Below are positions 27,855-50,913 of a stretch of DNA of 64,000 nucleotides, piece by piece. A model generated the notes under the pieces. That model did not search any database. It saw only the letters and a program-made list of their open reading frames with translations, and had not been told where the DNA came from. This stretch comes from Methylophilus sp. 14 (lineage in GTDB: Bacteria > Pseudomonadota > Gammaproteobacteria > Burkholderiales > Methylophilaceae). Position 1 is the stretch's first letter; every line of letters starts with the position of its first letter. The stretch lies in the NCBI RefSeq assembly GCF_015354345.1, contig NZ_JADKYS010000001.1, forward strand, positions 372,001 to 436,000, written 5' to 3'. The position numbers and the translations under genes are program-made.

Positions 27855-27951
27855 GTGTCATTTCAATAAAATCATATAGTTAATAGGCAACGTAATCGAA
27901 AATTTACAACAAGAAGGTGTTTGGGGAGAGTTCGAGATTTGGCTTGTTAAA

Positions 27952-28245: not shown

Positions 28246-28271
28246 AAATAAAGGAATGCGAGTCCTAGGTT

Positions 28272-32221: not shown

Positions 32222-32349
32222 TCAGAAAGCTCTCTCCTGACAATCGGTCCAAAATCAATTCGTACAAACATACTTTGATGAGTGGATTTGATTTTTTCCA
32301 GCAGCGAGTCATGTCAATCCGATCCACCAATTTCCAACCGAGTTATTCC

Positions 32350-33123: not shown

Positions 33124-33214
33124 ATATCAATCAGCCTATGAAGTTTTATCGGAATATTCACTTCTAAGGGATTATTGAGTAAATCATCTCAAGCTATATT
33201 CGCCTGACTGAAAA

Positions 33215-34156
33215 CTAGTAAGGTCCTAGAAATCTTGAGCCGTTAAAGTGAACCATGTGAGTAGGGGCATCTGATACCCAAACCTCGGTTTCCCAAGAAA
33301 TTTCAGGCAGATATTTAAGAAAGATTTTTTTATTCGGAAAAGCAGAGACAAAAATCAGTCCTGCCGTACACCCTTTGAATAAAGTCGATAGTTCGCTGTG
33401 GCGTTTTGAGTCAACTGGCCCATGACTTGTTACTGACTCAATTAAAATCAACCAATTTCGCTTTTCATCATACAAAACGACATCTGGCAATTTTCCGTGG
33501 TTATCTAAAACAACTCCAAGGTTTTTTAGCAAATCGATATCAAAGTAACCATGTTTATCGCCCGTATCCCCAACGTATACTAGTTTACTATCAGGAGCGA
33601 AGATGGGACCAAACACATCGACAATTTCTTTGATTAACTGAGAGTGCAGGCCTGGTGAGAGTTTTATTTCATGGCCGTCTTTCAGTATCAGTGGAATCAT
33701 TACTGCATCCCTAGCTTTTGCATATTTTTCTGCCAAACTTTCTCGCACCGACAAGAATAGCCCCATATTCTCATCAAACTTATCTGTTCCATAAGTTCTT
33801 AGCACTTCGAGAAGATTGGGTTCAATTTGGTAGATGGCTTTAGGGCTGTTCACCGGTCTTTCTGGGTCATCGGGATTGTATAAACAAAGTCCAGCATCCA
33901 TGAGCTGATGCATGGACTGTCTTCTAAATGTTTCTCTTGTGTTTGGAGCGTAATTCTTTTCGTAATTATCACGTGACCAATCCATAATAGGTGTAATGCC
34001 AACCAATGGGTCGGTAGCATCACTCCAATTTTTGGATGGTGGCAAATCAAGCAAACATAGTAAACAAAGTGCCGTTCTTTCATTCAATTGTGCTCTTGGC
34101 ATACCAAGAAGTTTCAGTATTTGAATGGCCTCATCAATCTTTTGCTGGATTGTCAT
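33215..34156 (-). CDS. BsuBI/PstI-type type II restriction endonuclease
   Basis: A 313-residue protein matching the BsuBI/PstI restriction family: an N-terminal helical domain and a C-terminal nuclease domain with YVGDTGDKHGYFD (about 194-206) and the PD-x(n)-E core (PD at 224-225, E240 in LILIESVTSHGP). Family members cut CTGCAG, but this site is not proven here. Its start overlaps the methyltransferase stop by one base, so enzyme synthesis is coupled to the protective methylase. Confidence 0.85.
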   Translation of the reverse strand: MTIQQKIDEAIQILKLLGMPRAQLNERTALCLLCLLDLPPSKNWSDATDPLVGITPIMDWSRDNYEKNYAPNTRETFRRQSMHQLMDAGLCLYNPDDPERPVNSPKAIYQIEPNLLEVLRTYGTDKFDENMGLFLSVRESLAEKYAKARDAVMIPLILKDGHEIKLSPGLHSQLIKEIVDVFGPIFAPDSKLVYVGDTGDKHGYFDIDLLKNLGVVLDNHGKLPDVVLYDEKRNWLILIESVTSHGPVDSKRHSELSTLFKGCTAGLIFVSAFPNKKIFLKYLPEISWETEVWVSDAPTHMVHFNGSRFLGPY

Positions 34157-35598: not shown

Positions 35599-35670
35599 CG
35601 TTTTCTGCTACCTTCAGTTAAGGCGGTAATTATAAGTGCATTGCCGACTTCAAAATACAAATTAAAGTGG

Positions 35671-36528
35671 TCAGATAGCCAACTCTATTGGCCTATGAGT
35701 CGCTAATATTTTAATATGATCGGTTTCTATAAATGCTTTCGTGATACAGCAATTCTTGAACTTCTTATTACTGCCGCATAAACATATCTTGTTACGACCA
35801 TAGTTCTTGTATTCTGGTTTGAGAGATTGTACTTTCGAAATCTCTAAACCAGTAAAGTCTGAAATTTGAAATTTATTAGATGTGAGCAGTGTTGCCAAAT
35901 AGCTCACAGCATTGAATGCCTCATCTGTGTCGTTATATTTAACTACACATCTCTTATCGTGAGGATTGTGTGTCATAGCAATATGATCTATTTGCATTAT
36001 GTTCTTTCCGATAGACTTTGCCATTTCTCCAGAATATAAGTTGCCGGGGAGATGAATGCAGTTTGGGGAGTCGATATGGTGCCCACAAATGCTGCATTCG
36101 AAATATTCAACCACCATGCCAACTGAGAAAAATACATTGTAGGGATACAATTTCTCAAGAGCTAATAGCTGTTGTTCAAAAAACTGAACATTGATTTTCG
36201 AGAATTTTTTAATCGCACGTATTAAATCGAAACAGCTCTGTAAATAATCCCACGAGCTTACGAATTGATTAGCTGTTATTTTCTCCCAGGTTCTACCGTA
36301 AGCATCTATTAATTGAATAAAGCAATTTAAGACCCAAATATCGTTGAGGAGGTTAGGATCTTCAGAAATGGTGGCTTTAAGTTCTTTTATGAACTCTTGA
36401 AGCGCATTTATTAATTCTTGAGCTTTTTTAAATTGATGACGGTTATGATCTATTAATATTGATCGGAAGATAGGCTTTAACTCATCAAATAAATGATCGG
36501 CTTTGGCGGTAGATAGGTAATTACTCAT
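35671..36528 (-). CDS. SEC-C motif protein of a four-gene operon
   Basis: A 285-residue protein, helical for the first 130 residues, with a CSICGHH cysteine pair in the middle and a C-terminal SEC-C zinc motif (CLCGSNKKFKNCC). SEC-C modules bind zinc and occur in SecA and in many toxin or defence-linked proteins. It overlaps the preceding gene by 8 bases. The rest is not recognised, and its role in the operon is unknown. Confidence 0.6.
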   Translation of the reverse strand: MSNYLSTAKADHLFDELKPIFRSILIDHNRHQFKKAQELINALQEFIKELKATISEDPNLLNDIWVLNCFIQLIDAYGRTWEKITANQFVSSWDYLQSCFDLIRAIKKFSKINVQFFEQQLLALEKLYPYNVFFSVGMVVEYFECSICGHHIDSPNCIHLPGNLYSGEMAKSIGKNIMQIDHIAMTHNPHDKRCVVKYNDTDEAFNAVSYLATLLTSNKFQISDFTGLEISKVQSLKPEYKNYGRNKICLCGSNKKFKNCCITKAFIETDHIKILATHRPIELAI

Positions 36529-37051
36529 CTAGAAATCTGTTTAGGTCCAAACGTTTAATCACCTTTTGAAGGGAATTTACATCGCCTTCAAAATCAAACC
36601 TCTTAGTGATGCCCCTGGGTTTATCCTCAAATACAACGCTGAAACGTGCGTGAACCTTCTCTCCCTCAAGAAGGCCTTTCATTTTTTCATATAAGTAATT
36701 AGAAACTATATTTAGATAAATAGGGAATGATATGTCACTAGCTAGAAAAACTAGCGGAAGGAAAACGTCATGTGAGTGTAAAACCAGCTTGGGTTTTTCA
36801 GGGTCCAAAACAACATCAATTTCGTGATAGTTATTTTTGATCCATTTCGCAAAATGTCCTGCTTCAGATTTAACAGTCAACTGGTTGCAGAATGGAGTCT
36901 CTTCAGGGGCTATTAAAATTCCACATTGTTTTGTTGATAAGAAGTGTTTAAAACTCTCATCCTCTTTGAGTGTTTTTATTTCAGCAATATCTCGTTGACC
37001 TAAATGTGCATCTATCAAGATTCCCCCCCTTGGATTACTAAAAACATGCAT
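36521..37051 (-). CDS. Hypothetical protein, second-last gene of the XRE/TM/SEC-C operon
   Basis: A 176-residue soluble protein (MHVFSNPRGGILIDAHLGQR...). Alternating strands and helices and a conserved-looking core (LVLHSHDVFLPLVFLASD) suggest a folded domain, but I recognise no family. It lies 18 bases after the membrane-protein gene and overlaps the SEC-C gene by 8 bases, so all are co-translated. Confidence 0.55.
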   Translation of the reverse strand: MHVFSNPRGGILIDAHLGQRDIAEIKTLKEDESFKHFLSTKQCGILIAPEETPFCNQLTVKSEAGHFAKWIKNNYHEIDVVLDPEKPKLVLHSHDVFLPLVFLASDISFPIYLNIVSNYLYEKMKGLLEGEKVHARFSVVFEDKPRGITKRFDFEGDVNSLQKVIKRLDLNRFLDE

Positions 37052-37069
37052 GTTTAGCTATTCGCAACA

Positions 37070-37690
37070 CTAATAATCGGTAATGTTTTCTATATGTTTC
37101 AAGATAACCTCTTTTTTATAAGAAAAATCATGCAAAAGAGATATCAGTGTACCAATTATGAGTCCAATACCTGTCGACTGAATAATGGTCACTAACCCCG
37201 CCTGAGCGATAAAGATTATCCAGAACACACAACAGCCAGAAATGGCTGCAATCGAAAAAGCTAAAATGTTTGCGACATCTGGCTGAATCGGCGCGGAATG
37301 AACAGTGATGTCGCCATCGTCAGAAATCTTGATCAGACCTACTGACATCAAAAATGGGATCGTCCTTTTTTCCAGGATTTGGCGTTCGATTAGTTTACGA
37401 CGGTACCAGTCAGCGAGCTTTTGGATATAAGCAAAAACAACATAAATTGAGCTACGAGGTGTTGAACTGGCTATGATGTTAGGATTACTTTTCGGGACTA
37501 CTTCAAGTAATGGTTTGTCAACTATGTTTTTATTCAATGCTCGGGATTGACGATATTTTCTTAATCTTAGGACAGGTTTTCTAAACCATATCTTTTTAGT
37601 AATAAAAGACCAGCGCGAACTCTCCTCCTGGTCATGGATATCCCCAAGCCGTACTACGGCATCAATTAATTCCTCAACACCTTTATTCAT
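37070..37690 (-). CDS. Two-helix membrane protein of the XRE/TM/SEC-C operon
   Basis: A 206-residue protein with a basic N-terminal cytoplasmic part and two adjacent membrane helices near the C-terminus (about 135-190; rich in I, A, G, F), ending in a short charged tail. It overlaps the XRE gene by 8 bases. A small effector with two terminal helices beside a regulator and soluble partners is a layout seen in abortive-infection systems, but no named family was recognised. Confidence 0.55.
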   Translation of the reverse strand: MNKGVEELIDAVVRLGDIHDQEESSRWSFITKKIWFRKPVLRLRKYRQSRALNKNIVDKPLLEVVPKSNPNIIASSTPRSSIYVVFAYIQKLADWYRRKLIERQILEKRTIPFLMSVGLIKISDDGDITVHSAPIQPDVANILAFSIAAISGCCVFWIIFIAQAGLVTIIQSTGIGLIIGTLISLLHDFSYKKEVILKHIENITDY

Positions 37691-38096
37691 TTGAGCTCTT
37701 CGTTAAATTGTCTTGTGCCATTGAAGTGGTGAGTTGGGAAACTAGTAAGGTAAACATTAAATAACGCTTGTCGTCATCCATGTTTCCCAGTTCCGCTTCG
37801 TTCTTTGCCAAGAGGCTGAGTGCTTTTTTCTCAATCTCTTTTTTTTGCCAATCTTGCACGTCAATACTGTTGGTTCTCACACCAAACAAAACGTATTGAA
37901 TATCTATACCAGCCGGAATGATTGAGCTTATATATTTCAATGTCGGGAGATTAGTACCTTTTTCATATTGGAATTGAGTCATCTTCCCAATCCCTGCCAG
38001 GTCAGCTAATTCCATTTGAGATAACCCAATCTTTTTTCTCTCCTCTTGGAGTCGAGTTCCGATTCCATCTTTCAATGGCATGTTTAATTTTGACAT
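37683..38096 (-). CDS. XRE-family transcriptional regulator
   Basis: A 137-residue protein with an N-terminal helix-turn-helix (about 10-65: RLQEERKKIGLSQMELADLA) and a helical C-terminus. It is the first gene of the minus-strand operon and faces a second small HTH gene across a 97-base AT-rich divergent intergenic region. It probably represses its own operon. It could also act as a controller for the restriction-modification genes downstream. Confidence 0.8.
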   Translation of the reverse strand: MSKLNMPLKDGIGTRLQEERKKIGLSQMELADLAGIGKMTQFQYEKGTNLPTLKYISSIIPAGIDIQYVLFGVRTNSIDVQDWQKKEIEKKALSLLAKNEAELGNMDDDKRYLMFTLLVSQLTTSMAQDNLTKSSNE

Positions 38097-38193
38097 AGGA
38101 AAATGATAATAAGTGTTTAATCAAAACTCAACAAAATTATACAAATTACATATTTATGATATTTAGTTATTTAAATATGATATATTTAGCCTT
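38097..38193. promoter_or_regulatory. Divergent promoter region of the XRE operon and the small HTH gene
   Basis: A strongly AT-rich 97-base gap between two divergent HTH genes; it must hold both promoters and probably operators. A -10-like TATGAT occurs at 38176-38181 for the rightward gene. No convincing -35 box could be fixed. Confidence 0.4.
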
Positions 38194-38436
38194 ATGAAAC
38201 CTACCCAAGAATCTATTGAGAAAGTAAAAGACGAGTTTGCTGAAAATGGCATTTCCATTTCAGAGTGGGCTCGCGTAAATGGCTTTTCCGCTAGTCTGGT
38301 ATATCAAATACTTGAAGGGCGTCGGTCTTGCATACGTGGTCAAAGCCACAAAATCGCTGTTGCCTTGAAGTTAAAGACAGGGAAGGTTTCTGAAGTAACT
38401 GAGTTGTTCAGTTTTAAAGCTTTGAAGGAAAGCTGA
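38194..38436 (+). CDS. Small HTH DNA-binding protein upstream of tnsA
   Basis: An 80-residue protein with a helix-turn-helix core (ISISEWARVNGFSASLVYQI) and a basic tail, of the kind found in phages and integrative elements (Ner/Nlp-like). It precedes the transposition genes but is separated from tnsA by a hairpin. A role in repressing or timing transposition is a guess. Confidence 0.65.
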   Translation: MKPTQESIEKVKDEFAENGISISEWARVNGFSASLVYQILEGRRSCIRGQSHKIAVALKLKTGKVSEVTELFSFKALKES

Positions 38437-38455
38437 AAGGAATATATGAAATAAA

Positions 38456-38494
38456 AAAACCGGAATCATCATTTAAGAATCATCCGGCTTCTTA
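38456..38494 (+). terminator. Probable terminator after the small HTH gene
   Basis: An imperfect hairpin whose arms carry ACCGGA and ATCCGGCT with ATCAT repeats, flanked by A7 on the left and TTCTT on the right, 20 bases after the HTH gene stop. Confidence 0.5.
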
Positions 38495-38604
38495 CCGCTT
38501 ACAGCGGAGGTACAACTTGTTGGCGCTTGTAGTATCTCTCAGTGAGTGGGTGAAGTCAAGGCTTTGTGTTGCCGTCAATTTCATTCATGTTTTTGGGAGA
38601 GATT

Positions 38605-39531
38605 ATGAAAGAACCATCCAAAAAATCGAGCAACTCTGCTCGAAACCTTAAGAAATCCGTACCTCATCGAACCGTTGGTGGGTTTAACGTCCATCACATT
38701 AACCCGTTTCCAGTGGAGTATGAGTCATACAACGAGCGCAACACCACCTTGCTACTAGCGCTCTGTCATGATGTATCGAGTATCAGAAGCCAACCCGTTG
38801 TATTTGACTATGTTGATAAGCAGGGAAAGCATCGCAAGCATACGCCAGATTTTGAAGAGACATCCATTACTGGAGAGCCTCTCTATTTAGAAGTTAAAGC
38901 TCTTGAAGATTTGCTCAAACCACAGAATATCGCCAAATACATCCCAATCGCGAAAGAGTATTACAGGCAAGGGGTATATTTTCGGTTTCTCACTAATATT
39001 CAGATTGAAAACCAGCCAGTTTTTCAGGCAGTAAAGCTTTTATTCCGTTACGTGAACTCAGTTTCCTCACTGGTTCATTTGGAACGAGCTCAGCATTTCC
39101 TTAATGATGGAGCAATGCCAATCGTGGCCTTGATGGAAAAAGCCCAGATGGAGTTACGCGATGTGTATACGTTAATGGCCAAGCGGCAAATCACTTTCGA
39201 TCTTAGCAAACCACTGAATAGAAATTCCTATATCAGTTTGCCCAATCAACCATATGGAGGAATCACCCTTGAGGCAATACTATGTTCAACCCGGTATGGT
39301 GATCTTCTACAAAAGCTGGCTTTGGGTCATCAACCGACGGATAAATCACTCCTGGCAGCTGCGAAGAATTGGCGACAATCTAATAACCATGCTGACGTTT
39401 GGTCAGTGGTCGGAGATTTCGCAGAGCTCCCGCCTCTCCGTGATGCCAGCTCAAGTGGCTTTCTACGAGGCCCTAAGCTCAGAAGAGCTTTCGCGCCTGG
39501 TATCTATCATCCGCAAATCACAGTTGAGTGA
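38605..39531 (+). CDS. tnsA: Tn7-like transposase endonuclease subunit TnsA
   Basis: A 308-residue TnsA-type endonuclease, which nicks the 5' ends of the element so that it leaves by cut-and-paste. Restriction-fold residues are visible: E44 (YNERNT), D82 (HTPDF) and K98 in LEVKA. ATG 38605 is chosen for its GGGAG five bases upstream. It is the first gene of tnsABC-tniQ-tniQ. The last 100 codons overlap a protein-like frame (39254-39583), so a frameshift or dual coding near the 3' end is possible. Confidence 0.85.
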   Translation: MKEPSKKSSNSARNLKKSVPHRTVGGFNVHHINPFPVEYESYNERNTTLLLALCHDVSSIRSQPVVFDYVDKQGKHRKHTPDFEETSITGEPLYLEVKALEDLLKPQNIAKYIPIAKEYYRQGVYFRFLTNIQIENQPVFQAVKLLFRYVNSVSSLVHLERAQHFLNDGAMPIVALMEKAQMELRDVYTLMAKRQITFDLSKPLNRNSYISLPNQPYGGITLEAILCSTRYGDLLQKLALGHQPTDKSLLAAAKNWRQSNNHADVWSVVGDFAELPPLRDASSSGFLRGPKLRRAFAPGIYHPQITVE

Positions 39532-39539
39532 GGTGCCAC

Positions 39540-41543
39540 ATGCGACCATTTCAAATTTCCAAGGGCCTCGTCATTTTTACTGACGGCGAGCAATATGAGT
39601 ACACCGATCGTGCTGCAACTGAGCTTTATTTTCAGTCGCTGGAATCCGGCAAACGCAAGATCATTAAAGAACCTGAGTTTTGGCCGGGGGTTCAGGAAAA
39701 GTCGATTGCTGTATTGCATTCGATTGTTACAGACAAAATTGTAGAGTCGAAATTTGCTGATCAAAGCCAATTAAAATTTATCAGCGAGCTAAAAGCTAAA
39801 CACTTTAGTGACCTACAAAGGCGTTTGCACTATGTCATTGGCTTGAAAAAAGAAGGCATCTCTCGTGGTTGTCGCAAAACCATTGCCAGCGTTCTCCCCA
39901 AGCTTGCGGCGTCTCTCAATGACTCCAATCCGCCCTCTGCATCCACAGTGCAGGCATGGATGCGCCAATATGAAACAAGTGATGATCCGAATGTTTTTTT
40001 GGTTACCGGTAATGCATTTCGAGCAAAACCAGAACGTGTCGATACTGAAAGCGAACTGTTTTTACAGAATCAACTTCAACTTCATTACGCATCAATTACA
40101 CGGCCTAGCATTACCACCGCCTATAAAGCTTATCGAAATGATCTCAAGCAAGAAAATCTCAGGAGAGAACGAGATGAAGCCAGTCTGTTACATCCGGTGT
40201 CTGAGAAAACCTTTTACAACCGTATTAAGGATTTGCCTCAGAAAGAATTATTGATTGCGCGCGAGGGGTATGAGGTTGCGCGCAAAATGCTTAAGGTTAG
40301 CAAGGGGAATCTTCCAGCTGATTACCCTCTGGATGTGGTGGAAATTGATCATACGCTGATGAACCTATATGTAGTCGACGATCAATCATTTTTGCCTCTA
40401 GGACGTCCCTGGATCACTGCTATCAAGGATCGATATTCCAATATTCTGTTGGGATTTTATATTTCATTTCATGCCGGTGGCCTCAGATCAATTTTCGGAG
40501 CAATCAAGCATTCACTTTACTCACATCAACGTGCATATGAGCGATGGCCCGACATCGAAAATCCCTGGCCAGCCTTTGGATTAGGGGTTGTTTATTGCAG
40601 TGACCGTGGTTCAGACTTCATGTCTCAGCAATACCTGAGTGCGATTCTGGACCTTGGCGCTAGCTATGAGTATTGCGAACGCCGAACACCGTGGCTCAAA
40701 GGGTCGATTGAACGGTTTTTTGGCACTCTTGAGAGCACATTTTTCGAGACCATGCCGGGCAAAACATTTAATAGCCTCGCTAACCGAAAAGACTATGAGC
40801 CTAACAAGCATGCTGTCATACGTTTTAGTTCGTTAATTTATCTCATCCATAAATGGGCTGCTGACTACCATAATGTCACACCGCACTCACGCAAAATGGC
40901 CTCACCTATGGAGCTGTGGAATGAAGGAATTGAGATTGCGCCGCCGCGTTATCCAGCCTTTCCTAATGCCTTAGACGTGATTCTGGGATTGAGAAATAAA
41001 GGCACACTCCAAAATGAGGGCATTCAGCACCTAGGGTTGCATTATGCCGATGCGGGGCTGCAAGCGCTGGTTGATGATATTGGCAAAAAACGTGAAGTTG
41101 AATTCATCGTTTCACCAGAGAATCTGGGCTACATCCATGTCAAGGACCCAAGGACTGGAGAGTACATGCGAGTTAACTGTACTCGACCAGACTATGCACA
41201 CGGATTAACGTTATTTCAGCATAAGTATTTGCGGCATGAAGCCAAACTTCACTCGCAATCTGTCAGATCTGTGGATGAGCTTTTGAGTTTTCGGGATACC
41301 GTTGCGTTGAAAGTCAACGAAGAGATTAGTCAAAAAAATAATCATCTAAAAAAACAATTGGCACGGGCTGCGGATATTAATTCAAATGCGGTTCTTGATG
41401 GAGAAACTCGGACTACTAACGACGTGTTCGGAAATGTAGGCAGGACACCGCAATCATCTGTAAATGAGGAAAGCAGTGTTAATACAGATGACGATACTGT
41501 ACCTTTTACTGATATTCCAACGTATAAGTTCCGAGCAGCATGA
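39540..41543 (+). CDS. tnsB: Tn7-like DDE transposase TnsB
   Basis: A 667-residue DDE transposase that binds the end repeats and joins 3' ends to target DNA. Counting from GTG 39528, the triad is D274 (VEIDHT), D359 (CSDRGSDF) and E395 (GSIERFFG), i.e. DD35E spacing. A small N-terminal KOW-like segment and HTH region precede the core; a Mu-type C-terminal domain follows. ATG 39540 is chosen because GAGG lies six bases upstream; the GTG at 39528 overlapping the tnsA stop is the alternative. It overlaps tnsC by four bases. Confidence 0.93.
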   Translation: MRPFQISKGLVIFTDGEQYEYTDRAATELYFQSLESGKRKIIKEPEFWPGVQEKSIAVLHSIVTDKIVESKFADQSQLKFISELKAKHFSDLQRRLHYVIGLKKEGISRGCRKTIASVLPKLAASLNDSNPPSASTVQAWMRQYETSDDPNVFLVTGNAFRAKPERVDTESELFLQNQLQLHYASITRPSITTAYKAYRNDLKQENLRRERDEASLLHPVSEKTFYNRIKDLPQKELLIAREGYEVARKMLKVSKGNLPADYPLDVVEIDHTLMNLYVVDDQSFLPLGRPWITAIKDRYSNILLGFYISFHAGGLRSIFGAIKHSLYSHQRAYERWPDIENPWPAFGLGVVYCSDRGSDFMSQQYLSAILDLGASYEYCERRTPWLKGSIERFFGTLESTFFETMPGKTFNSLANRKDYEPNKHAVIRFSSLIYLIHKWAADYHNVTPHSRKMASPMELWNEGIEIAPPRYPAFPNALDVILGLRNKGTLQNEGIQHLGLHYADAGLQALVDDIGKKREVEFIVSPENLGYIHVKDPRTGEYMRVNCTRPDYAHGLTLFQHKYLRHEAKLHSQSVRSVDELLSFRDTVALKVNEEISQKNNHLKKQLARAADINSNAVLDGETRTTNDVFGNVGRTPQSSVNEESSVNTDDDTVPFTDIPTYKFRAA

Positions 41544-42487
41544 TGATAGAAAGTCTACTTGATGATGCTCCAATCATCGTTCCAGGCACTTCCAGAACTA
41601 GCGTCACTCGCGAGGAGGCTCTTGAAGGCTCTCCAGAACAAAAACAACATTATTTTTTAGATGTGAAAATCGAGGTCGACGGATTCACTCAAGCCAGCAA
41701 ATTTGTTGATGCATTACTGGATCGGGGTAAACGGAGACTTAAGCCCGGAGGCCTGTGGGTGATTGGCGAGGGCGGTGTAGGTAAAAGTTTTATATTGGAT
41801 GATATCTATAAACGGTACCCCCATCTGGATACAAGTATTGCAAGAATTACCCCGTTGATTTGTCTTAGTTTTAGAAGCCGGCCTTCAGCCTCAGATCTCT
41901 TGTGCACGATGCTTTTTCAGTTAGGACAAGATTCTGGGCTCATGAAAAACAAATCCAATGACGACTTGGAAGATAGCTTGATTGAGTCATTAAAGTCTTG
42001 TGGAACGCTAGGCATCATGTTTGATGAGGCGCATCACCTCTGGTTGAACTCTAGTGGCAGGATTAAGGACCGGGTAGGCGGTCCTATTGGGGATCTTCTT
42101 AAGCGAATGTATGACAGAACAAATATTGCCTACATCTTTTCAGGTACACCAGGGCTGATAAATACAGTTTTTGTTGATAAACAAGTAAGGACTCGCTGGG
42201 CAGGTGTTATCACACTGAAAGAGTTTGAGCTGGATGCTAGATTTTATGGACTATTGAACGCCCTGGATAGTGCTATCCCATTACCTAAGGAGTCTGGACT
42301 AGGACAGCGGCGGAAACTTGCAGAAAGCATTTACGCGTCTACTTTGGGGAATTTCAGGCTAATCAAAGATTTATTAGGAGAGGCTGTATTTCTAGCTGCC
42401 AAAGATAATTCACCGAAACTTGAAGTCCATCATTTGGCAGAGGCACATTTCAGACTGTTCTGCGATCGAGAGAATCCCTTTGTATGA
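41540..42487 (+). CDS. tnsC: Tn7-like AAA+ regulator TnsC
   Basis: A 315-residue AAA+ ATPase with Walker A GEGGVGKS (76-83) and Walker B IMFDEAHH (D162-E163). TnsC/TniB proteins assemble on DNA, link the targeting protein to TnsB and confer target immunity. It is coupled by four-base ATGA overlaps to both tnsB and the first tniQ. It is shorter than Tn7 TnsC (555 residues) and nearer TniB size. Confidence 0.93.
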   Translation: MMIESLLDDAPIIVPGTSRTSVTREEALEGSPEQKQHYFLDVKIEVDGFTQASKFVDALLDRGKRRLKPGGLWVIGEGGVGKSFILDDIYKRYPHLDTSIARITPLICLSFRSRPSASDLLCTMLFQLGQDSGLMKNKSNDDLEDSLIESLKSCGTLGIMFDEAHHLWLNSSGRIKDRVGGPIGDLLKRMYDRTNIAYIFSGTPGLINTVFVDKQVRTRWAGVITLKEFELDARFYGLLNALDSAIPLPKESGLGQRRKLAESIYASTLGNFRLIKDLLGEAVFLAAKDNSPKLEVHHLAEAHFRLFCDRENPFV

Positions 42488-43494
42488 ATATTCTGAGCAG
42501 AGTAACTCATCGTCTTGAACCAAATGCTGATGAGAGTGCTATCGGTTTTATGATGCGGGTGGCTCATAAGAATCGACTCAAGTCAGCACCAGAGCTTTTG
42601 AAAAGAGTTTTGGGCAGCGAGTCCCCAGTCATTCTTCATCAGAGAATTCCTGATTTGGCATTTTTCTGTCGAAACACTATTGATGAATTTCAGCAGCTTT
42701 CAGGATTCGAGAAGTGGTGGGACGCGGAACCACATTGGGTAATTCAGGGTGAATGGCTAACCAAGTCTGTTTTTATCCAGAATCAGTTATCCAGAGCATG
42801 CCCAATGTGTCTGGATCAGTCACCATATATAAGAGCTTTGTGGAGTCTCAGCTTTTACAAATATTGTGCATGGCATGAGTGTGCATTAATTGATCGTTGT
42901 CCAAAGTGCCATCGAACGCTTGACTGGGACAGATCGCGCCCCGAGTTTTGTAATTGTAATCAGTATCTTGGAGAGCACAGTCTAGAACTACCTCAACCAG
43001 AAAGTTTGCTACTGTCCAAAGTGATTGCCTATCGGCTCACACAGGATCAGTCGCTCATACAGACGCAGAGTAATCAGTTGGTTGAACAGTTAGCTGCATT
43101 AAGTGTTGATGGATTATGTAAAACCATATGGTTTTTAGGACACTGTATTCCTGAATTAGGCCAATACTCTACTGGACATGGTAGAAAGCGACCTAATGAC
43201 CAGGTGTTTGCAAATATGCTGCAATCTGCTTTCGCTTTATTGAGGAACTGGCCAGAATCACTAGGGCGCATCCTGGATAAGAGTATTCATCAAGAGCTCC
43301 ATCCTCAGTTCTCAGCAGTTGCTTTTCATTATCTTCTGAGGCCTCTTGATCATTATTTAAAGTCGAGTTTGGATAGCCCTGAACTTGCTTTTATCGGGCA
43401 TATGTATGAGCAGTATTTACATCAGATATGGCTAAAGTCTGGTCGCAGAAATAGCGGCTCTCGATATGAAAAACAATTGAGGCTGGAGTTTTAA
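42484..43494 (+). CDS. tniQ: TniQ/TnsD-family targeting protein 1
   Basis: A 336-residue TniQ-domain protein with two zinc-knuckle pairs: CPMC (about residue 103), then a HEC motif and CPKC, and later CNC. TniQ/TnsD proteins choose the insertion site by binding DNA or a partner and recruiting TnsC. It overlaps tnsC by four bases. It is shorter than full TnsD, so it may act with the second TniQ or with a partner. Confidence 0.88.
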   Translation: MNILSRVTHRLEPNADESAIGFMMRVAHKNRLKSAPELLKRVLGSESPVILHQRIPDLAFFCRNTIDEFQQLSGFEKWWDAEPHWVIQGEWLTKSVFIQNQLSRACPMCLDQSPYIRALWSLSFYKYCAWHECALIDRCPKCHRTLDWDRSRPEFCNCNQYLGEHSLELPQPESLLLSKVIAYRLTQDQSLIQTQSNQLVEQLAALSVDGLCKTIWFLGHCIPELGQYSTGHGRKRPNDQVFANMLQSAFALLRNWPESLGRILDKSIHQELHPQFSAVAFHYLLRPLDHYLKSSLDSPELAFIGHMYEQYLHQIWLKSGRRNSGSRYEKQLRLEF

Positions 43495-43496
43495 CA

Positions 43497-44429
43497 ATGG
43501 TCAGTATGCTGCAGGTAAGAGAAATTGAGCAGAGGTTACGCTCACAACAACGTTCACTCCCTTATTTGAATATCGACGGCGCCAGAAGACTGCTGGGGCT
43601 GCCTGTGATTCACTCAGATGAAGTATTCAGCTCCTGGATAGTCAGGATCATGTTGAGCCGTAAAATCAATAAACGAAAGTTACTGGAAGAGATCAACTGG
43701 AAAGAGGCGATCCATCTGGCTGACTTGAAACCTGCCTCTTTCAATCTGAAGCATCTGGTATTGCGCTTCAACCTCATACAAATCGAATTGTTGGAGCGGA
43801 GTTTTCTGCAATTTGAGATGCCATTTGTTGATTCTCTGTGCCTGACCACAGATATTTTAAATCGAAAGCCTATTTTCCGATTTTGCCCTTATTGTATTGC
43901 TGAAGAGCCGTATATTAGAAAGTCTTGGCGATATGCATTTTCATATGCCTGCCCAGATCATGGTTGTTTATTGTTAGAACAATGCACGCAGTGTGGTGAA
44001 TCAATCGATTTTGAAAAGCTCAATATTTCAAAAATGGATGAGTTGAGTATTCACGACTTAAGCAGTTGTTTATCTTGTGGTACTGGATTGTCATCTCAGC
44101 AGCCACATAGAATATCTGATAGAGCGATGAACATAGTGCTTGATAGGCAGGCATCAATGTTTCGTGAATTAAGCAGCGGTGTAAGAATCAATAATTACAT
44201 TGCTCAGATACGCTATTCCGAAAACGGGCTTCTGAACTGTTTAAATGTTGGCGTAAGTGGCAGTTTGATCTTCAAAGAGGATGCGGACGAAGTTCGTACT
44301 GCTTTTCGCAAAGCAGGTATTTTTTCTACGTCATATTGGCAGCCATCGGGTTGTATTCCGGTAACCAAAGGCGTCGGAAAAGTTAAACGCGCAAAACAGT
44401 GGGTGATTAAACACCGAGAACAGCTTTGA
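43497..44429 (+). CDS. tniQ: TniQ/TnsD-family targeting protein 2
   Basis: A 310-residue TniQ-domain protein, distinct from the preceding one. Its zinc pairs are CPYC (about residue 129), CPDHGC, CTQC and CLSC. The N-terminal part contains the typical SWIVRIMLSRK segment. It begins two bases after the first tniQ stop. Two TniQ proteins can mean two target pathways or a heteromeric targeting complex; which applies here cannot be told. Confidence 0.88.
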   Translation: MVSMLQVREIEQRLRSQQRSLPYLNIDGARRLLGLPVIHSDEVFSSWIVRIMLSRKINKRKLLEEINWKEAIHLADLKPASFNLKHLVLRFNLIQIELLERSFLQFEMPFVDSLCLTTDILNRKPIFRFCPYCIAEEPYIRKSWRYAFSYACPDHGCLLLEQCTQCGESIDFEKLNISKMDELSIHDLSSCLSCGTGLSSQQPHRISDRAMNIVLDRQASMFRELSSGVRINNYIAQIRYSENGLLNCLNVGVSGSLIFKEDADEVRTAFRKAGIFSTSYWQPSGCIPVTKGVGKVKRAKQWVIKHREQL

Positions 44430-44496
44430 CTGAATTTAAACCTGTGCGACTCAACATACAACGTTGGGATTGCTGAACCTGGAATGGATATTACCT

Positions 44497-44706
44497 ATGA
44501 AAATTAAATCCGAATATTCTGCCAATCAGGCCCATATTCTTGAATTGGCAATAGACACCTTTGGCTCTCAAGAGACCGCTGAGGCGTGGATGAACGATTA
44601 CAACCGCATGTTAGGCGGTACACCCTTGACCATCGCGGAGTCAGATACAGGGATGCAAGAAGTCAAAAAAATATTAGGTGCGATAAGTTATGGTGGGGTA
44701 GCTTAA
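44497..44706 (+). CDS. Small DUF2384/MbcA-ParS-like protein
   Basis: A 69-residue protein resembling the toxin-binding half of Xre-MbcA-ParS antitoxins: a helix, then FGSQETAEAWMNDYNRMLGG, then TPLTIAESDTG and a final helix. The N-terminal HTH of full antitoxins and the partner RES-type toxin are both absent. It follows the second tniQ by 67 bases on the same strand, so it may belong to the transposition unit. ATG 44497 is used; an in-frame TTG lies at 44464. Confidence 0.6.
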   Translation: MKIKSEYSANQAHILELAIDTFGSQETAEAWMNDYNRMLGGTPLTIAESDTGMQEVKKILGAISYGGVA

Positions 44707-44812
44707 AACTCTTTAATGTCAGTAATCTTTGTACTTAGAACTCAATGTCACTACTACGCTTTTATATCGCTGATGGATTGGTTAAATAAGAGTTAAAAAG
44801 GAAAAGTTAACT

Positions 44813-44911
44813 ATGCTAAATGTAGCTATTTTCTTAAGTATTATTGGTACTGTCTTTGCGATAGCCTTGGCAATTTTTACTTATAAACAGCACAAATCAA
44901 AAAAGAAATGA
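44813..44911 (+). CDS. 32-residue single-helix membrane microprotein
   Basis: A short frame, MLNVAIFLSIIGTVFAIALA and then a Lys-rich tail (KQHKSKKK). It has an AAGGA-like ribosome-binding site eight bases upstream. The composition is that of a one-pass inner-membrane protein with a positive cytoplasmic tail. Small toxins and small membrane regulators look alike at this size, so no function is assigned. Confidence 0.5.
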   Translation: MLNVAIFLSIIGTVFAIALAIFTYKQHKSKKK

Positions 44912-44949
44912 CTTGTAGCAAGTTATGTGGGGCCAAGTAGCAAGTACAT

Positions 44950-45906
44950 CTAACGCTGTAGCGGCTCAATCAACATTTCCCAGAATAATTCTGCTGCACC
45001 CTCGTTACTCAGAAGTTGATTAGTATGACCTCTGAAAGCCATCCCGATTGGTTTAAAGCCTAAAGTGTAACCATCATCAGATAAAGTCATACATTCGTTA
45101 TAACTGTTTTGACTTACGCCACTGGAGCTAAAAAAGATATCTCCGCCTCGTCCATCAGCTGTCCATATACCGCATCTTGATTTACGTTTACCTTGAACAT
45201 AAATTGCTGCTTCAAAACTATTTGCATCAATCCTTCGAAACTCACATTCAACCTCCGTATTCCTGGCAGCTAACTCGTTTAAGGAATTTTCAAAATAGCC
45301 TGAGATGTACTCATAAGCTTGAATTCTTGCTTTGTCTTTTTCTCTATCCGTAAATGTTTTTCTAACTCTAAGATTACTAGATCGCTCAATATTCTCTTCA
45401 ATCATCTGACTGGGGAGAAGGCGTGATTCAATTGAATCAGTATCCAATCGTGATTTAACGTTGGCACTAGGTGTCCTTTTTAATGCATTCTTGATAGATT
45501 TAACAACCTCCAGAAATCCATCATCATGTGTCGGAAAATGCACTATCGGTTTACCATCCGTTGTCGCGGCCATTAATTTACCAAATGGCAATTCATGCCA
45601 ATCACACGGTCTAAGGATTACAGGAATAACAATGGCCTCTTTAGACTCGTGACGAGCTAACGATTTCGTCATTTCTATGTTGTAGCAATAGTCTGAAGCA
45701 ATGAAATCCGGACTAACCAACAAAAGTACTATATCGGCATTTTCAAAATGCTGATCAATTTGATTCGCGAATTCTTCCCCTGTCTTAATCCGCCGGTCGT
45801 GCCAGGTGTCAATCAGGCCTTGCCGTTTCAGGCCTGCGAGATGTGTTTCTAATTCATTCCTTAGCGATTCATCTACATGTGAGTATGAGAAAACTAAAGT
45901 AGTCAA
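44950..45906 (-). CDS. TIR-domain protein with unknown C-terminal domain
   Basis: A 318-residue protein with an N-terminal TIR domain (about 1-145): VFSYSHVDE, the DADIVLLLVSPDFIASDY-like core (NADIVLLLVSPDFIASDY) and the putative NADase glutamate E78 (CYNIEM). Residues 180-318 form an unrecognised domain. Bacterial TIR proteins often degrade NAD+ or make signalling nucleotides in anti-phage defence. It is followed upstream on the same strand by a 145-residue unknown. Confidence 0.82.
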   Translation of the reverse strand: MTTLVFSYSHVDESLRNELETHLAGLKRQGLIDTWHDRRIKTGEEFANQIDQHFENADIVLLLVSPDFIASDYCYNIEMTKSLARHESKEAIVIPVILRPCDWHELPFGKLMAATTDGKPIVHFPTHDDGFLEVVKSIKNALKRTPSANVKSRLDTDSIESRLLPSQMIEENIERSSNLRVRKTFTDREKDKARIQAYEYISGYFENSLNELAARNTEVECEFRRIDANSFEAAIYVQGKRKSRCGIWTADGRGGDIFFSSSGVSQNSYNECMTLSDDGYTLGFKPIGMAFRGHTNQLLSNEGAAELFWEMLIEPLQR

Positions 45907-45925
45907 AATTCTTTCCTTGATTGCG

Positions 45926-46363
45926 TTAAATTTCTAAGGGTTTTTGGAGCGCTAAACAAATGAAATGGGTGATGATTTCTATCGCATTGTATTCAAGTGT
46001 AACTGGAGCATCTCCGCTGGGCGGTTCAAAGTCAGTAACGCCTTGACCGTTAAAACTGATCACTCCAAGAATGACTTTTGACTCGGAAAACCTAGGGCTC
46101 TCTTTCGAGCAATAAATAGTGCCTGAAAGTGAATTGTCTTCTTTCACAAGTATAGTAAATTCAAAGCGCAGTCGAATGCCTGAATATAAGACATCGAAGT
46201 AGTCACGATCAAAGTTTTCTTCAAAAGATAAATTTTGCAAGCCTGCAGCAGGTTCTGCCAAATATTGACCAGCTTTAAAAAACTCAACGAAGCGTGTCTG
46301 CATTACTTGGTAGCGCTTACCAGCTTGAAGTGCCTGGTTGAAAGCATTTGATACGAGTTTCAT
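45926..46363 (-). CDS. Hypothetical protein beside the TIR gene
   Basis: A 145-residue soluble protein with a helical N-terminus and a beta-rich rest (LRFEFTILVKEDNSLSGTIY). It lies 19 bases upstream of the TIR gene on the same strand, so the two are probably co-transcribed, and it may be its partner or regulator. No family was recognised. Confidence 0.55.
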   Translation of the reverse strand: MKLVSNAFNQALQAGKRYQVMQTRFVEFFKAGQYLAEPAAGLQNLSFEENFDRDYFDVLYSGIRLRFEFTILVKEDNSLSGTIYCSKESPRFSESKVILGVISFNGQGVTDFEPPSGDAPVTLEYNAIEIITHFICLALQKPLEI

Positions 46364-46495
46364 ACCTTGCCCGAGTTGTTTAATGTATTTCTAGCATACT
46401 AAATGAAAGTAACTTAGAACAGAGGATGTGCTCAAATGCAGCCCAGCAAGGAGAAACTAGAATACGAGATCTGATGTGAATAGCTATTGAGGGAC

Positions 46496-47380
46496 TTACA
46501 TTTCAGCAATCAGTTGTAATTGCTCTAGATACTCTTTATTGCTCTTGGATAGCCAGTTAATGACGCGTGCATTGTTCAGAATCGTTTTGATATGTGTTTT
46601 GATAATGGTCAGTTGAAGGTTGTCAGGGCCGTAGCTTTCTTCTAAGAGTTTCGTGTCGGCCTGAACCAAGGCTAATTCTTTTTCCAGCTGTTGAAGACTT
46701 TCAAGAGCGCTACTGTTTTTTGCAGCTTTTAGTTTATTGCTTTCTACGAGCTGGTCGGGCGGAGTTGCATGAAGCATCGCCATGGCGAACTTCAAAGAGT
46801 AATTATTCAGATTGATCATGATGTTCGCAACATCTATCTGCCGGAAAGCTTTCATGCACTTAAGGACAGGAAACACTCTTTTTGGCACGGGCTTATCGGC
46901 CAGCAGGGTTGCAACCTCGTCACAAATGCCATTCAGTAATCGAAAGCGCTCACGAATAGCATCCACTGAAATGCCGAGTGCTGCAGCCAGAGTTTTTGCA
47001 TCGACGCCATTTTCATGCGCCTGTACGATCATTCGATGTTCCTGAATGGACGAAAGCCGATTGACACTTTTGTTATAGGTATACCCCTCATCGTCCTTGG
47101 AAATCAGGCATGTCGCTTCCTGAATATTCAGGTCTTTCATTGCCTCAGCGCGAAGGTGCCCATCCAACAGCAGAAATTTATCTTTATGTTCCGGATGCTG
47201 GATCACAACGAGAGGTTCGACCAGGCCAATCGCTTTGATGGAGATTTTTATTTGCTGATACTTGGTGCCGTTCTTGATCGTAGGCGCTAATGGTTGAGAG
47301 TAAATCAATCGATCAACTGGGATCTTGATCGTGTGATTTTCAAAGCCCAGATGCACCTGTTTTTGAGATGGCTGGGTCAT
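46496..47380 (-). CDS. ParB-like protein with RepB C-terminal domain (second of two)
   Basis: A 294-residue ParB/RepB-type protein. The ParB N-terminal domain has LLDGHLRAEAM in place of the usual GERR box, then an HTH (AAALGISVDAIRERF), and a RepB-like C-terminal helical domain. It overlaps the first ParB-like gene by four bases. Classical ParB works with ParA in plasmid or chromosome segregation; no ParA is present here, so another role, possibly with the recombinase, is likely. Confidence 0.8.
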   Translation of the reverse strand: MTQPSQKQVHLGFENHTIKIPVDRLIYSQPLAPTIKNGTKYQQIKISIKAIGLVEPLVVIQHPEHKDKFLLLDGHLRAEAMKDLNIQEATCLISKDDEGYTYNKSVNRLSSIQEHRMIVQAHENGVDAKTLAAALGISVDAIRERFRLLNGICDEVATLLADKPVPKRVFPVLKCMKAFRQIDVANIMINLNNYSLKFAMAMLHATPPDQLVESNKLKAAKNSSALESLQQLEKELALVQADTKLLEESYGPDNLQLTIIKTHIKTILNNARVINWLSKSNKEYLEQLQLIAEM

Positions 47381-48264
47381 AGGTGACCTCCGCTGCGCGC
47401 AAAGTCCAGTAAGGGTTTTGGCACACGATTTAGACTCTCTGATTTAAGCAGCTCGCAAAACTCCTTATCAGCATAAAGCTCTTTGAAAATTTGTTGAGCA
47501 AGCAAGATGGTGTTTTTTGCATGCTCGGATTTTTTCTGAATGAGTCTGTGCCTCTCGGTATCTTCCTGGTATAGCTTGGCTAATTCTTCTGTACTCAGTT
47601 TTTTTGATGGTTTGTTGAGGCCGAAGGCTCCAATGGGTCGACTCTTGCCACTACGAATACGCTGTTCCAGGATTCGACGCGCAGCACTGATTTTCTTACC
47701 TTTGAGTTCGCCTCGTTCATAGGCTTCAAGCAAAAGCATTTGAGCATCTGAATCACTCACACGTGATATTTCAACAGCGAGATTCAGGGGGATGTGACCC
47801 GCTTCTGCGGCAGCCAAAAGTCTTCGTTCACCCTTTTCCAGAAGAAGGGTCACGTTATTGACCCAGGCTGTTGTGTAGCCAATTTTCCTGGCGATATCAG
47901 CATCACCGTATCCACGTTTTTGCAAGTTACTGATCTGGTCCATCATTTCACTGGCTCTTGGTGTGCGACGAGCAATATTTTCAACAATACTCATCACATA
48001 GCCGGTCTCACTATCAACATCAATAATGATGGCGGGGACCATTGCTTGCCCTAACATCTGGAAAGACTCTAATCTTCCCTGGCCACATACCAGAGCATAG
48101 CGCTCATCGGCAGGGTCTCCCAGTCGTCTCACCGTGATTGGTCGTTTAAGACCAACCTTGTCGATGTTTTCCGTGATTGACTTATGAATTCTGGCATTCC
48201 GGACCCTAGGATTCGCAATCTTTATTGAGTCGATCGGAATCATTTGTATGGCGGTTTTAGTCAT
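47377..48264 (-). CDS. ParB-like protein (first of two)
   Basis: A 295-residue ParB-domain protein with the box II-like CGQGRLESF, the ENIARR motif and an HTH (DIARKIGYTTAWVNNVTLLL). The C-terminal third is charged and helical. It overlaps the serine recombinase by one base and the second ParB-like gene by four. It is only distantly similar to its neighbour, which argues for two specialised subunits and against a recent duplication. Confidence 0.82.
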   Translation of the reverse strand: MTKTAIQMIPIDSIKIANPRVRNARIHKSITENIDKVGLKRPITVRRLGDPADERYALVCGQGRLESFQMLGQAMVPAIIIDVDSETGYVMSIVENIARRTPRASEMMDQISNLQKRGYGDADIARKIGYTTAWVNNVTLLLEKGERRLLAAAEAGHIPLNLAVEISRVSDSDAQMLLLEAYERGELKGKKISAARRILEQRIRSGKSRPIGAFGLNKPSKKLSTEELAKLYQEDTERHRLIQKKSEHAKNTILLAQQIFKELYADKEFCELLKSESLNRVPKPLLDFARSGGHL

Positions 48265-49835
48265 TAAGCAACCTCCTTGAGAGCTTCACGACTGGTCAAT
48301 TGATAAAACAATTCCAGTGTGTCGACGCGGTAAACATCCAATGTAAAAGTGTTGAACTCGTTGAAAGGGAGAGTTTCTGGGGAGAAGTCCGTAAGGGGCA
48401 AAACGTAATAATCAAATATCGTTGTATTGCATGGAGCCATTCGCACCACAATGGTTATGTCAGGTTTAAGGCTGCTATCTAACCTGATGATCCAACGGTT
48501 TCTGCCATTCTGGCCAAGCTTGCATCTCGCTATGACTAGCGAGATCGTGAGTTCACCATTGACCGTAAACAGGCCGTTATCAGTGTTTGAGGTAACCCAG
48601 CCGCCACGGTTTTCGATGTTGGATGTTATTTCTGAAATCAGATCTGGGTATCGTTTACGTAATGTCCGATTGATTTCAAGGTACGCGTAATCACGACGAG
48701 GATGGAATCCGATCAGGCTGTATGCACGTAACAGAGTGCCAAAGCGATTACGGTAAGTCATGCTCGATGGAGCGTCATCCTCTTCATCAATAATGATCGC
48801 GGACAGCGCGCCATGACGCGCCAAGATGGCTTTCAGGATATCAAGCATATGGCTGTCATCCAGGTGTTTGGACCTTTTCTCAATGACAGCCTGAACTTTC
48901 CAGAATGTTTCAATCGGAACGATTGCTTCAAAAGCGCCATCTTTGCGAACCCATTTCGATGGGTCATTTTTCTCAAGCCTCATTTTCAGTTTGAATGAGA
49001 TGCGATTGAAAACGTTATTGCCTATGTACTTTTCATTGGTAAGTATTTGGTGGACTACCGCACGGGTCCACGGTCGCCCCGTTTCTGAAATGATTTTTTG
49101 ATTATTGAGGAGGTTGGCGATATCACGCTCGGGCATGCCATCGTGAAGAAATAACCGATATATGAAATTTACTGTTTCTATTTCTTCAGGTGGCCCCGGG
49201 ACAAGTAATATCCGGTCAGTTTGAATGCTCTTGTGTTCGCCACGTTTCAGCATTCCCTTTATGTTGTGATTTTCATCAACAAGCTGACGACGCAGACCAT
49301 AACCTGGGGATCCGCCTTGGCGGTAGCCTTTTTTAATCAGTGTGGTTTGACCGACGAAAACCTTGACTGACAGTTCGCGCGAATATTCCGCAGCCATACT
49401 ACGTTTGATATTTTTGATAATGGTGGATTGTAGAGAGCCATCATTACTAAACTGCTCAGCACAATAAATGACTTGAATCCCATTTCTTTTGCAGGTTTGT
49501 TCATACATCGCGGCTTCATCAGGGTCGGGAAATCGCCCCCATCTGCTGACGTCATAAACAAGAATGGCACGGTATTCAATATCAGGCTTCTGGACATCAC
49601 TCAGCAGTTGCTGAAGCTGCTGTCGACCATCAATTCTAAGACCGCTTTTACCAGCATCCGCATAAGTCTTGATGATACGCATCCCATGGCGCCTAGCGTA
49701 ATCGGCAATAGCAAGTTGTTGGTTCTCTGTGGAGTAACGCTGATGTTCAGTCGACATGCGTACATACTGCGCAACTGGTATGTCAGCATCGGCTCTGTTT
49801 TCTATACTGCTTATGTTGTTTTGGTAAGACACCAT
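48264..49835 (-). CDS. Large serine recombinase
   Basis: A recombinase of about 523 residues. The N-terminal resolvase catalytic domain has S28 in YVRMSTEHQ and the VYDVSRWGR motif; a recombinase domain follows (about 185-300: GYRQGGSPGYG, DIANLLN). There is no visible Cys-rich zinc ribbon; the C-terminal 150 residues differ from phage integrases. GGAG lies a few bases before ATG 49835 and the adjacent GTG. It is first of an operon with two ParB-like genes. It could integrate or invert DNA; its site is unknown. Confidence 0.88.
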   Translation of the reverse strand: MVSYQNNISSIENRADADIPVAQYVRMSTEHQRYSTENQQLAIADYARRHGMRIIKTYADAGKSGLRIDGRQQLQQLLSDVQKPDIEYRAILVYDVSRWGRFPDPDEAAMYEQTCKRNGIQVIYCAEQFSNDGSLQSTIIKNIKRSMAAEYSRELSVKVFVGQTTLIKKGYRQGGSPGYGLRRQLVDENHNIKGMLKRGEHKSIQTDRILLVPGPPEEIETVNFIYRLFLHDGMPERDIANLLNNQKIISETGRPWTRAVVHQILTNEKYIGNNVFNRISFKLKMRLEKNDPSKWVRKDGAFEAIVPIETFWKVQAVIEKRSKHLDDSHMLDILKAILARHGALSAIIIDEEDDAPSSMTYRNRFGTLLRAYSLIGFHPRRDYAYLEINRTLRKRYPDLISEITSNIENRGGWVTSNTDNGLFTVNGELTISLVIARCKLGQNGRNRWIIRLDSSLKPDITIVVRMAPCNTTIFDYYVLPLTDFSPETLPFNEFNTFTLDVYRVDTLELFYQLTSREALKEVA

Positions 49836-49853
49836 TACTCCACACACCAGCAA

Positions 49854-50414
49854 AAGAGCCTCTTATGCTTCCATCGTTTAATGATATTTAGATGACGGTT
49901 TGATGAAGGTTGGTGATGACTCAATAAAAGATGAAAAGTGGTAAGTTTGTCCTACAAAACTCAAATATGCTGAATTGATTTTGCGATGTATAAATTTTTA
50001 ATCAATTCTAACAGCTTGAGTTATACCTAGCCTTTTGCTATCGCCGCGACCGAGCGAGAGTTGATTTCGATATCAACATGCTCACCATTCCCACAAAATA
50101 TCATTTAAAGAAGCTACCTAATAATGCTTGAAAGGGATCACTCCATATGGCACAAAATAGTCACCTTCGTTTTAGCATCAGCTCCATATGTAGAAAATGT
50201 AAAGATGTGAAAATAAATCCTCTTTAGTTTTCAGAGTCTTTAGGCCTTACGTTCCATGAATTTTACTTATTTAATTTCCAAGGGACTCGATAAATCAACT
50301 TTGAAACATCATGTAACTTAAAAGGCGTCATTGCAAAATGTTGCCTCAAACATCTTTTTAATGGACCAGTCAGGCCATGTAGATAAATCGCAAATACATT
50401 ATTAATATGCGAGG
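49854..50414. other. Island edge: intergenic region without genes
   Basis: About 560 bases, mostly AT-rich, between the divergent recombinase and DUF2946 genes. The only structure I see is an imperfect inverted repeat around TTGAT/ATCAA at 50062-50078, a possible recombinase or regulator site. The right border of the accessory island must lie here or close by. No transposon end matching 27815-27854 was found. Confidence 0.5.
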
Positions 50415-50849: not shown

Positions 50850-50913
50850 CGCTCCACTGAGAGTGGAGGGATTTGAAGCTGCGTCTCTATATGGGCGCTG
50901 ATGGAGTTATCAC

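What the first reader, a model, noticed from the sequence alone, without database searches (positions are those of the whole stretch)
46496..49835. Serine recombinase in a tight operon with two different ParB-like proteins and no ParA
Three genes overlap by one and four bases, so they are made together. The recombinase has an intact catalytic Ser and the two ParB-like proteins keep DNA-binding and box II-like motifs but differ strongly from each other. A ParB pair without ParA cannot run normal segregation. I infer the ParB-like proteins load on DNA near a site and direct, or count copies for, the recombinase. The recombinase C-terminus is also not the usual phage type. I know of no described mechanism for this trio.
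Basis: partly seen in the sequence, partly recalled or inferred. Interest (0 to 1): 0.7.

Follow-up and report, generated by a model that had tools for sequence, protein, structure and literature searches.

The report
Recombinase with two ParB-like partners
A DNA-rearranging enzyme and two DNA-binding partner proteins form one fixed gene trio that rides as extra cargo in viruses, plasmids and genomic islands of many bacteria, and it does not look like a chromosome-sorting system.

Summary
The trio is real: a large serine recombinase (LSR) with its catalytic Ser, then two different RepB/ParB-family proteins, minus strand, overlapping by 1 and 4 bases. It is conserved: all three genes were found in 125 of 125 relatives with room upstream (74 genome, 51 viral; six LSR frames broken), and none of 130 full trios has a ParA motif nearby (27 of 27 ordinary ParB loci do). 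None of 123 LSRs has the CxxC motifs of the usual zinc ribbon; the second RepB protein has lost the usual CTP-site motifs. The trio is usually not its carrier's only integrase: 28 of 41 long viral records hold another, in 15 an LSR 40 kb or more away. It behaves as cargo; here it lies at the right edge of a defence island. In 70 of 126 trios a new covarying structured RNA, absent from Rfam, follows; the same RNA also lies beside prophage tail genes without a trio, and the window lacks it. Best reading: a three-protein recombinase complex carried as cargo that acts on other DNA. Target and purpose are unproven.

The parts
48264..49835 (-). Large serine recombinase (LSR); ORF open from TTG at 49853
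47377..48264 (-). PB1, RepB/ParB-family protein with ParB_N and HTH region
46496..47380 (-). PB2, RepB-family protein with degenerate ParB_N
49854..50194 (.). Noncoding stretch between the LSR start and the latest position of the island's right edge
27882..50194 (.). Low-GC island that holds the trio (edges approximate, from comparison with same-genus genomes)
38566..44429 (+). Tn7-like genes: TnsA-like, TnsB-like, TnsC/TniB-like, two TniQ; neighbours, not part of the conserved trio
44950..45906 (-). ThsB-like TIR protein next to the trio; neighbour

Best explanation
The trio is one horizontally moved module: a serine recombinase core that works with two RepB-family DNA-binding partners. PB1 (ParB fold with HTH, partly kept nucleotide motif) recognises a DNA site; PB2 (degenerate ParB-fold partner with a long C-terminal helix) bridges or gates; together they stand in for the zinc-ribbon part that the LSR lacks and bring the LSR to the site for cleavage and strand exchange. 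It is carried as accessory cargo by prophages, plasmids, islands and a Tn7-like element, most of which have their own mobility genes, in places where lysogenic-conversion and defence genes also sit. Its likely job is therefore to act on other (incoming or competing) DNA or on the cargo slot, not to partition replicons or to integrate its carrier. Shown: conservation, fixed order, congruent distances, no ParA, no CxxC zinc ribbon, cargo position, other integrases in most long carriers. Inferred: complex formation, site recognition by PB1 and PB2, the reaction and its purpose.
For: All three genes: called automatically in 71 of 74 genome and 50 of 51 viral loci with more than 2.7 kb upstream; the four exceptions also hold LSR, PB1 and PB2 sequence. 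Six of the 125 have a broken LSR frame (L078, L100, L104, L111, L113, L120). Pairwise distances of the three proteins agree (Mantel r 0.855, 0.851, 0.933; best of 500 permutations 0.127; 123 trios with the window). 93 of 118 LSRs are 514 aa from a common start. No CxxC in the last 330 aa of any of 123 LSRs. LSR model (pLDDT 80, pTM 0.51) matches SPbeta, phiC31 and Bxb1 integrases (TM at most 0.41). PB2 model (pLDDT 86) matches ParB, Noc and KorB (TM at most 0.33 over the query), weakly sulfiredoxin and free serine kinase. In 41 of the 80 viral loci (all contigs of 34.6 kb or more), 17 records hold a second LSR (15 of them 40 kb or more from the trio) and 11 others a tyrosine recombinase: 28 of 41 (hand tally; L173 and L174 are identical). 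Other carriers: island after guaA with its own tyrosine integrase (L104); Sphingobium plasmid slot that in relatives holds ars or nhaA genes; Agrobacterium plasmid near AbiEii and Fic genes; Rhizobium plasmid near type I R-M; window near Gabija, R-M and ThsB genes.
Against: No activity, binding or expression data. No PADLOC model matches the trio, and defence genes nearby were not counted against a background. The loci are the best 80 of at least 539 genome relatives and 80 of 85 viral ones, so distant relatives may break the rule. IMG/VR records are biased to phage neighbours and often fragments; 13 of 41 showed no other integrase. Congruent distances follow from joint inheritance and do not prove contact.
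Confidence: 0.42

Rival explanations
1. The trio is a nested, self-moving integrative cassette (hitch-hiker): the LSR with its partners inserts a 3.5-5.5 kb unit into cargo slots of larger elements, in some lineages next to the structured RNA.
For: L080 (Maliponia) and L082 (Paracoccus) are 93% alike only from near the LSR start to the end of the RNA. Sphingobium plasmids differ by presence of the unit at one place, and the left junction in pSF1 and pNIN3 shares CGGCCGTG with the unfilled site of a relative. In one phage family the RNA is present with the trio (L144, L132) and without it (L315), with the DNA downstream 89-90% alike.
Against: No clean pair of ends, no target duplication and no second copy was shown. 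The pSF1 case can also be recombination between two plasmid backbones; in L144 against L315 the stretch between RNA and tail genes also differs by about 300 bases. Defence genes too move with unrelated flanks.
Confidence: 0.3
2. The trio is the integrase system of the element in which it lies.
For: LSRs are usually integrases and the window LSR matches the integrase family phrog_95; the trio is often near one end of a viral record, and in the window within about 340 bases of the island's right edge.
Against: 28 of 41 long viral records hold another site-specific recombinase; the guaA island has its own tyrosine integrase and a split trio LSR; the window's island has its own Tn7-like genes.
Confidence: 0.1
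3. It is a replicon maintenance system: RepB proteins bind a centromere-like site and the recombinase resolves dimers.
For: PF07506 is the domain of plasmid RepB; 49 plasmid records carry PB1 relatives.
Against: No ParA motif in 130 full-trio loci against 27 of 27 control loci; many copies are chromosomal or in prophages; PB2 lacks the CTP motifs.
Confidence: 0.08

Closest known systems
Large serine integrases of phages (SPbeta, phiC31, Bxb1), some with a recombination directionality factor
   Same: Catalytic and recombinase domains and fold matches; a partner protein in the known complexes (titles).
   Different: No CxxC zinc ribbon in 123 of 123; C-terminus modelled as helices plus a small beta domain; two RepB-family partners in a fixed operon; not the only integrase in 28 of 41 carriers.
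RepB/ParB partition proteins (repABC RepB, ParB, Noc, KorB)
   Same: PF07506 in both partners; PB1 profile finds Spo0J, Noc and ParB; PB2 model resembles ParB, Noc and KorB.
   Different: No ParA nearby; paired with an LSR; PB2 has DGxxR and almost never ENxxR.
Dehalococcoides ssrA-island integration module (PMC3146451, passages seen)
   Same: A serine recombinase gene (DsiB) in one module with a ParBc-domain gene.
   Different: One ParBc protein of about 210 aa, with DsiA, RecF and Mom homologues, in the island's own integration module; those passages describe no RepB pair.
Integron cassettes, IS607/TnpB and IS110 bridge-RNA elements (recalled)
   Same: A recombinase near a structured nucleic-acid element on the 3' side (70 of 126 trios).
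   Different: The RNA is not universal and also occurs without the trio; no guide or folded-site role has been shown.

Membership tests
ParABS partition system | ParA ATPase in the set | tested here: not met
   0 of 130 full-trio loci (2.15 Mb held) have an ORF with the ParA-type motif; control 27 of 27 chromosomal ParB loci.
ParABS partition system | ParB CTP-site motifs (GERR, ENxxR; names recalled) | tested here: inconclusive
   PB1: GxGR 121 of 123, GERR 5, EN..R[RK]-type 80 of 123 by a strict pattern. PB2: GERR/GxGR 0, ENxxR 1 of 123.
ParABS partition system | parS site bound by ParB | not testable with these tools
   Needs binding data; no shared upstream site seen by eye.
RepB (PF07506) family | PF07506 domain above cut-off | tested here: met
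   PB1 2.9e-16, PB2 6e-30.
Large serine recombinases | Resolvase + Recombinase domains and catalytic Ser | tested here: met
   PF00239 and PF07508; R-x-S motif in 119 of 123.
Large serine recombinases | Zinc ribbon of phage integrases | tested here: not met
   No CxxC in the last 330 aa of 123 of 123; no zinc-ribbon family listed at E 1.
Large serine recombinases | Coiled coil that controls direction | not tested
   Only the secondary structure of the model was seen.
Phage or island integrase | Only recombinase of its carrier | tested here: not met
   28 of 41 long trio-bearing viral records hold another.
Anti-phage defence system | Matches a described defence model | tested here: not met
   No PADLOC hit for any of the three window proteins at E 0.01.
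Anti-phage defence system | Protects against phage or plasmid | not testable with these tools
   No bench data.
Tn7-like transposon component | Linked to tns genes | tested here: not met
   With the window's proteins as queries, tnsA, tnsC and tniQ hits only in L032 and TnsB hits in 3 of 171 loci; diverged tns genes could be missed.

The most novel reading that the evidence does not exclude
The structured RNA element (R1) marks a cargo slot at the tail side of many prophages, and the LSR-RepB-RepB trio is the recombinase that loads and exchanges cargo there: an integron-like system built from a serine recombinase, two ParB-family proteins and a folded nucleic-acid site or RNA cofactor. In the comparisons made R1 has a sharp left edge, is joined there to trios, to other cargo or to other DNA, and keeps its structure by compensatory changes with and without the trio.
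Probability: 0.12. Interest if true: 0.92.

Novelty: new variant of a known kind. Interest (0 to 1): 0.62.

Why it matters
A fixed, widely transferred recombinase module with two ParB-family partners was not found described in the papers searched. If the partners replace the part that sets site choice in known serine integrases, it shows a new way to control these enzymes, which are used as DNA-insertion tools. The RNA that accompanies one large lineage is a new structured RNA candidate that also marks the tail-side border of prophages, so it gives a handle on how phages take up cargo genes.

Tried and rejected
Partition system: rejected (no ParA, PB2 motifs lost). Carrier integrase: rejected for 28 of 41 long viral records. 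Tn7 link: the Piscinibacter plasmid L032 also has tns genes next to the trio, but with the window's queries only L032 showed the set among 171 loci; rejected as a rule. Ends of the window's island: exact shared words between 27.6-28.3 and 49.7-50.5 kb were at most 10 bases, the repeat finder showed none that pair the two ends (each region searched alone); relatives put the left edge near 27881 and the right edge at or before 50194, and no empty site was found. R1 in the window: no credible match with filters off (best 3.6 bits, E 3.1); of 80 sources without an earlier match, the window among them, 1 matched (L034). Single-sequence folding of R1 was not better than shuffles (z +0.68, -0.07, -0.66, -1.07), so R1 rests on covariation. 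My first thought that the border about 220 bases after PB2 is an att site gave way to the RNA, whose last hairpin ends there. A claim that R1 belongs only to the trio was dropped. Two other downstream clusters were not resolved: 9 loci that look coding to me, 5 loci with hairpins not modelled. Unit borders at -4660 proved to lie at neighbouring genes. An inverted arrangement in L070 against L083 was not worked out.

Full report
Observation. The three genes are as described: LSR 48264-49853 (in-frame ATG at 49835), PB1 47377-48264, PB2 46496-47380, minus strand, overlaps of 1 and 4 bases. Pfam gives Resolvase + Recombinase for the LSR and the RepB domain PF07506 for both partners; ParB_N is clear in PB1 and below cut-off in PB2. 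The LSR keeps its catalytic Ser motif. In the window's 3.0-Mb genome PB1 occurs once; a second, weak hit (27% identity) looks like the chromosomal ParB (inferred).

Surroundings. The trio lies at the right edge of a low-GC island. Same-genus genomes share the left flank up to about 27881, just after groES, and one shares the right flank down to about 50194. Inside lie Gabija genes (28272-32221), a type II R-M pair (33215-35598), Tn7-like genes with two TniQ (38566-44429) and a ThsB-like TIR protein (44950-45906). The TnsA-like gene had no family test; it matches the annotated TnsA-domain gene of L032 at 25%. No repeat that marks the island's ends was found.

Conservation. In 187 genomes of the family two others have a close PB1 relative, both with the trio at 35-51% identity (their LSRs are cut by the locus ends); in 369 genomes of the class one more. 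So the trio is rare. Plasmid records gave 49 hits and phage records 1. A genome-contig scan with a PB2 alignment found at least 539 relatives, the best 80 kept; a viral scan found 85, 80 kept. With more than 2.7 kb upstream, PB1 and LSR were called in 71 of 74 genome and 50 of 51 viral loci; the four exceptions also hold all three. Six of these 125 have a broken LSR frame, which may be decay or sequencing error. The commonest overlap is 4 bases. Distances of the three proteins are congruent (Mantel r 0.85, 0.85, 0.93; best of 500 permutations 0.13), which excludes reshuffling but does not prove contact. In several carriers an HTH-like gene precedes the LSR in the other direction (seen; read by eye, not counted); the window has none.

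Proteins. None of 123 LSRs has CxxC in its last 330 residues, so the usual zinc ribbon is missing. The AlphaFold model (pLDDT 80, pTM 0.51) shows resolvase and recombinase domains, then helices and a small beta domain, and matches serine integrases at TM 0.41 or less. PB1 is nearest to Spo0J, Noc and ParB but has GxGR in place of GERR. PB2 (pLDDT 86) resembles ParB, Noc and KorB, weakly sulfiredoxin and free serine kinase; DGxxR is kept in 123 of 123, ENxxR in 1. One plasmid record (L035) has PB1 and PB2 in one open frame.

It is cargo. Of 41 long viral records with the trio (all contigs of 34.6 kb or more among 80), 17 hold a second LSR and 11 others a tyrosine recombinase, 28 in all; in 15 the second LSR is 40 kb or more from the trio (hand tally). 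Records are fragments in part, so absence in the other 13 means little. In L163 and L144 the trio converges on phage genes downstream, one of them a tail protein by PHROGs (L163). L104 lies after guaA in an island with its own tyrosine integrase. In Sphingobium plasmids the unit occupies a slot that in relatives holds ars or nhaA genes. No ParA-type motif was found in 130 full-trio loci, against 27 of 27 control loci.

A new RNA. Among 125 untruncated pairs of trio loci above 85% identity, homology ended 190-230 bases after the PB2 stop in 57. That stretch is a conserved hairpin-rich element, present in 89 of 156 PB2 loci with 150 bases downstream, and in 70 of 126 full trios (46 of 70 genome, 24 of 56 viral). 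In 36 representatives under 90% identical, 30 predicted pairs are 96.6% paired; 17 pairs changed on both sides, 71 cells against 14.7 in shuffles (0 of 500) and 4-7 in slid controls; the structure was derived from the same alignment. Rfam gave no match at gathering scores in the window or six trio loci, only a tRNA in a seventh, and none up to E 1 in one element. Single sequences do not fold better than shuffles. The window and the trios nearest to it lack it. A scan of 349 genomes of the phylum gave 27 hits in 18; 12 of the 18 hold no PB2 relative. Of 20 hits fetched, 5 lie next to trio genes, some broken or cut; of the other 15, 12 have a tail protein on the opposite strand 141-1082 bases on. 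L296's tested neighbour matched nothing; L304 and L305 (26 bits) show no phage gene by eye. Fifteen elements without an adjacent trio, folded afresh, gave matching helices with 13 of 21 pairs changed on both sides; they had been found with a model that includes the structure. In viral contigs an exact pattern hit 45; of 38 with 250 bases upstream 33 have PB2 adjacent and 5 do not. So the RNA is real but neither exclusive to the trio nor required by it.

Interpretation. The best reading is a three-protein recombinase complex carried as accessory cargo, the RepB pair taking the role of the missing LSR part. Whether it serves defence, cargo exchange or its own spread is open; the self-moving cassette is second. 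Membership in partition systems and carrier integrases fails on tested features. No paper on the trio was found, nor on the RNA (listings; passages seen in PMC9203015, PMC3146451, PMC12445526 and PMC8224337); most subscription journals are not in that library.

Noticed in passing
window 27882-50194: A defence island with Gabija, a type II R-M pair, Tn7-like genes with two TniQ and a ThsB-like TIR protein, directly after groES; the same-genus genomes compared have other DNA after groES.
   Followed up: partly
L086:10902-11123 and 91 other loci, downstream of PB2: New covarying structured RNA after the trio in one large lineage and, without the trio, next to prophage tail genes in other families; no Rfam match.
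   Followed up: yes
window 50415-55095 and genome contig C1 369640-372501: The genes right of the island (a TonB-type receptor and small exported proteins, read by eye) have a paralogous copy at 77-78% identity that overlaps the window's left end.
   Followed up: no
window 49874-49889 and 50096-50111: A 16-nt inverted repeat pair (88%) between the LSR start and the island edge; possible binding site, or chance.
   Followed up: no
L035 (NZ_CP110863.1): A record labelled Lactiplantibacillus plantarum plasmid holds a GC-rich trio with PB1 and PB2 in one 594-aa frame and a TIR gene like the window's; the label may be a contamination.
   Followed up: no
L187, L190, L192, L193, L169, downstream of PB2: Another conserved hairpin-rich stretch after PB2, different from R1; perhaps a second RNA type.
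   Followed up: no
L070 and L083: The same trio unit with neighbouring sequence in inverted arrangement, which suggests a rearrangement at the unit's edges.
   Followed up: no
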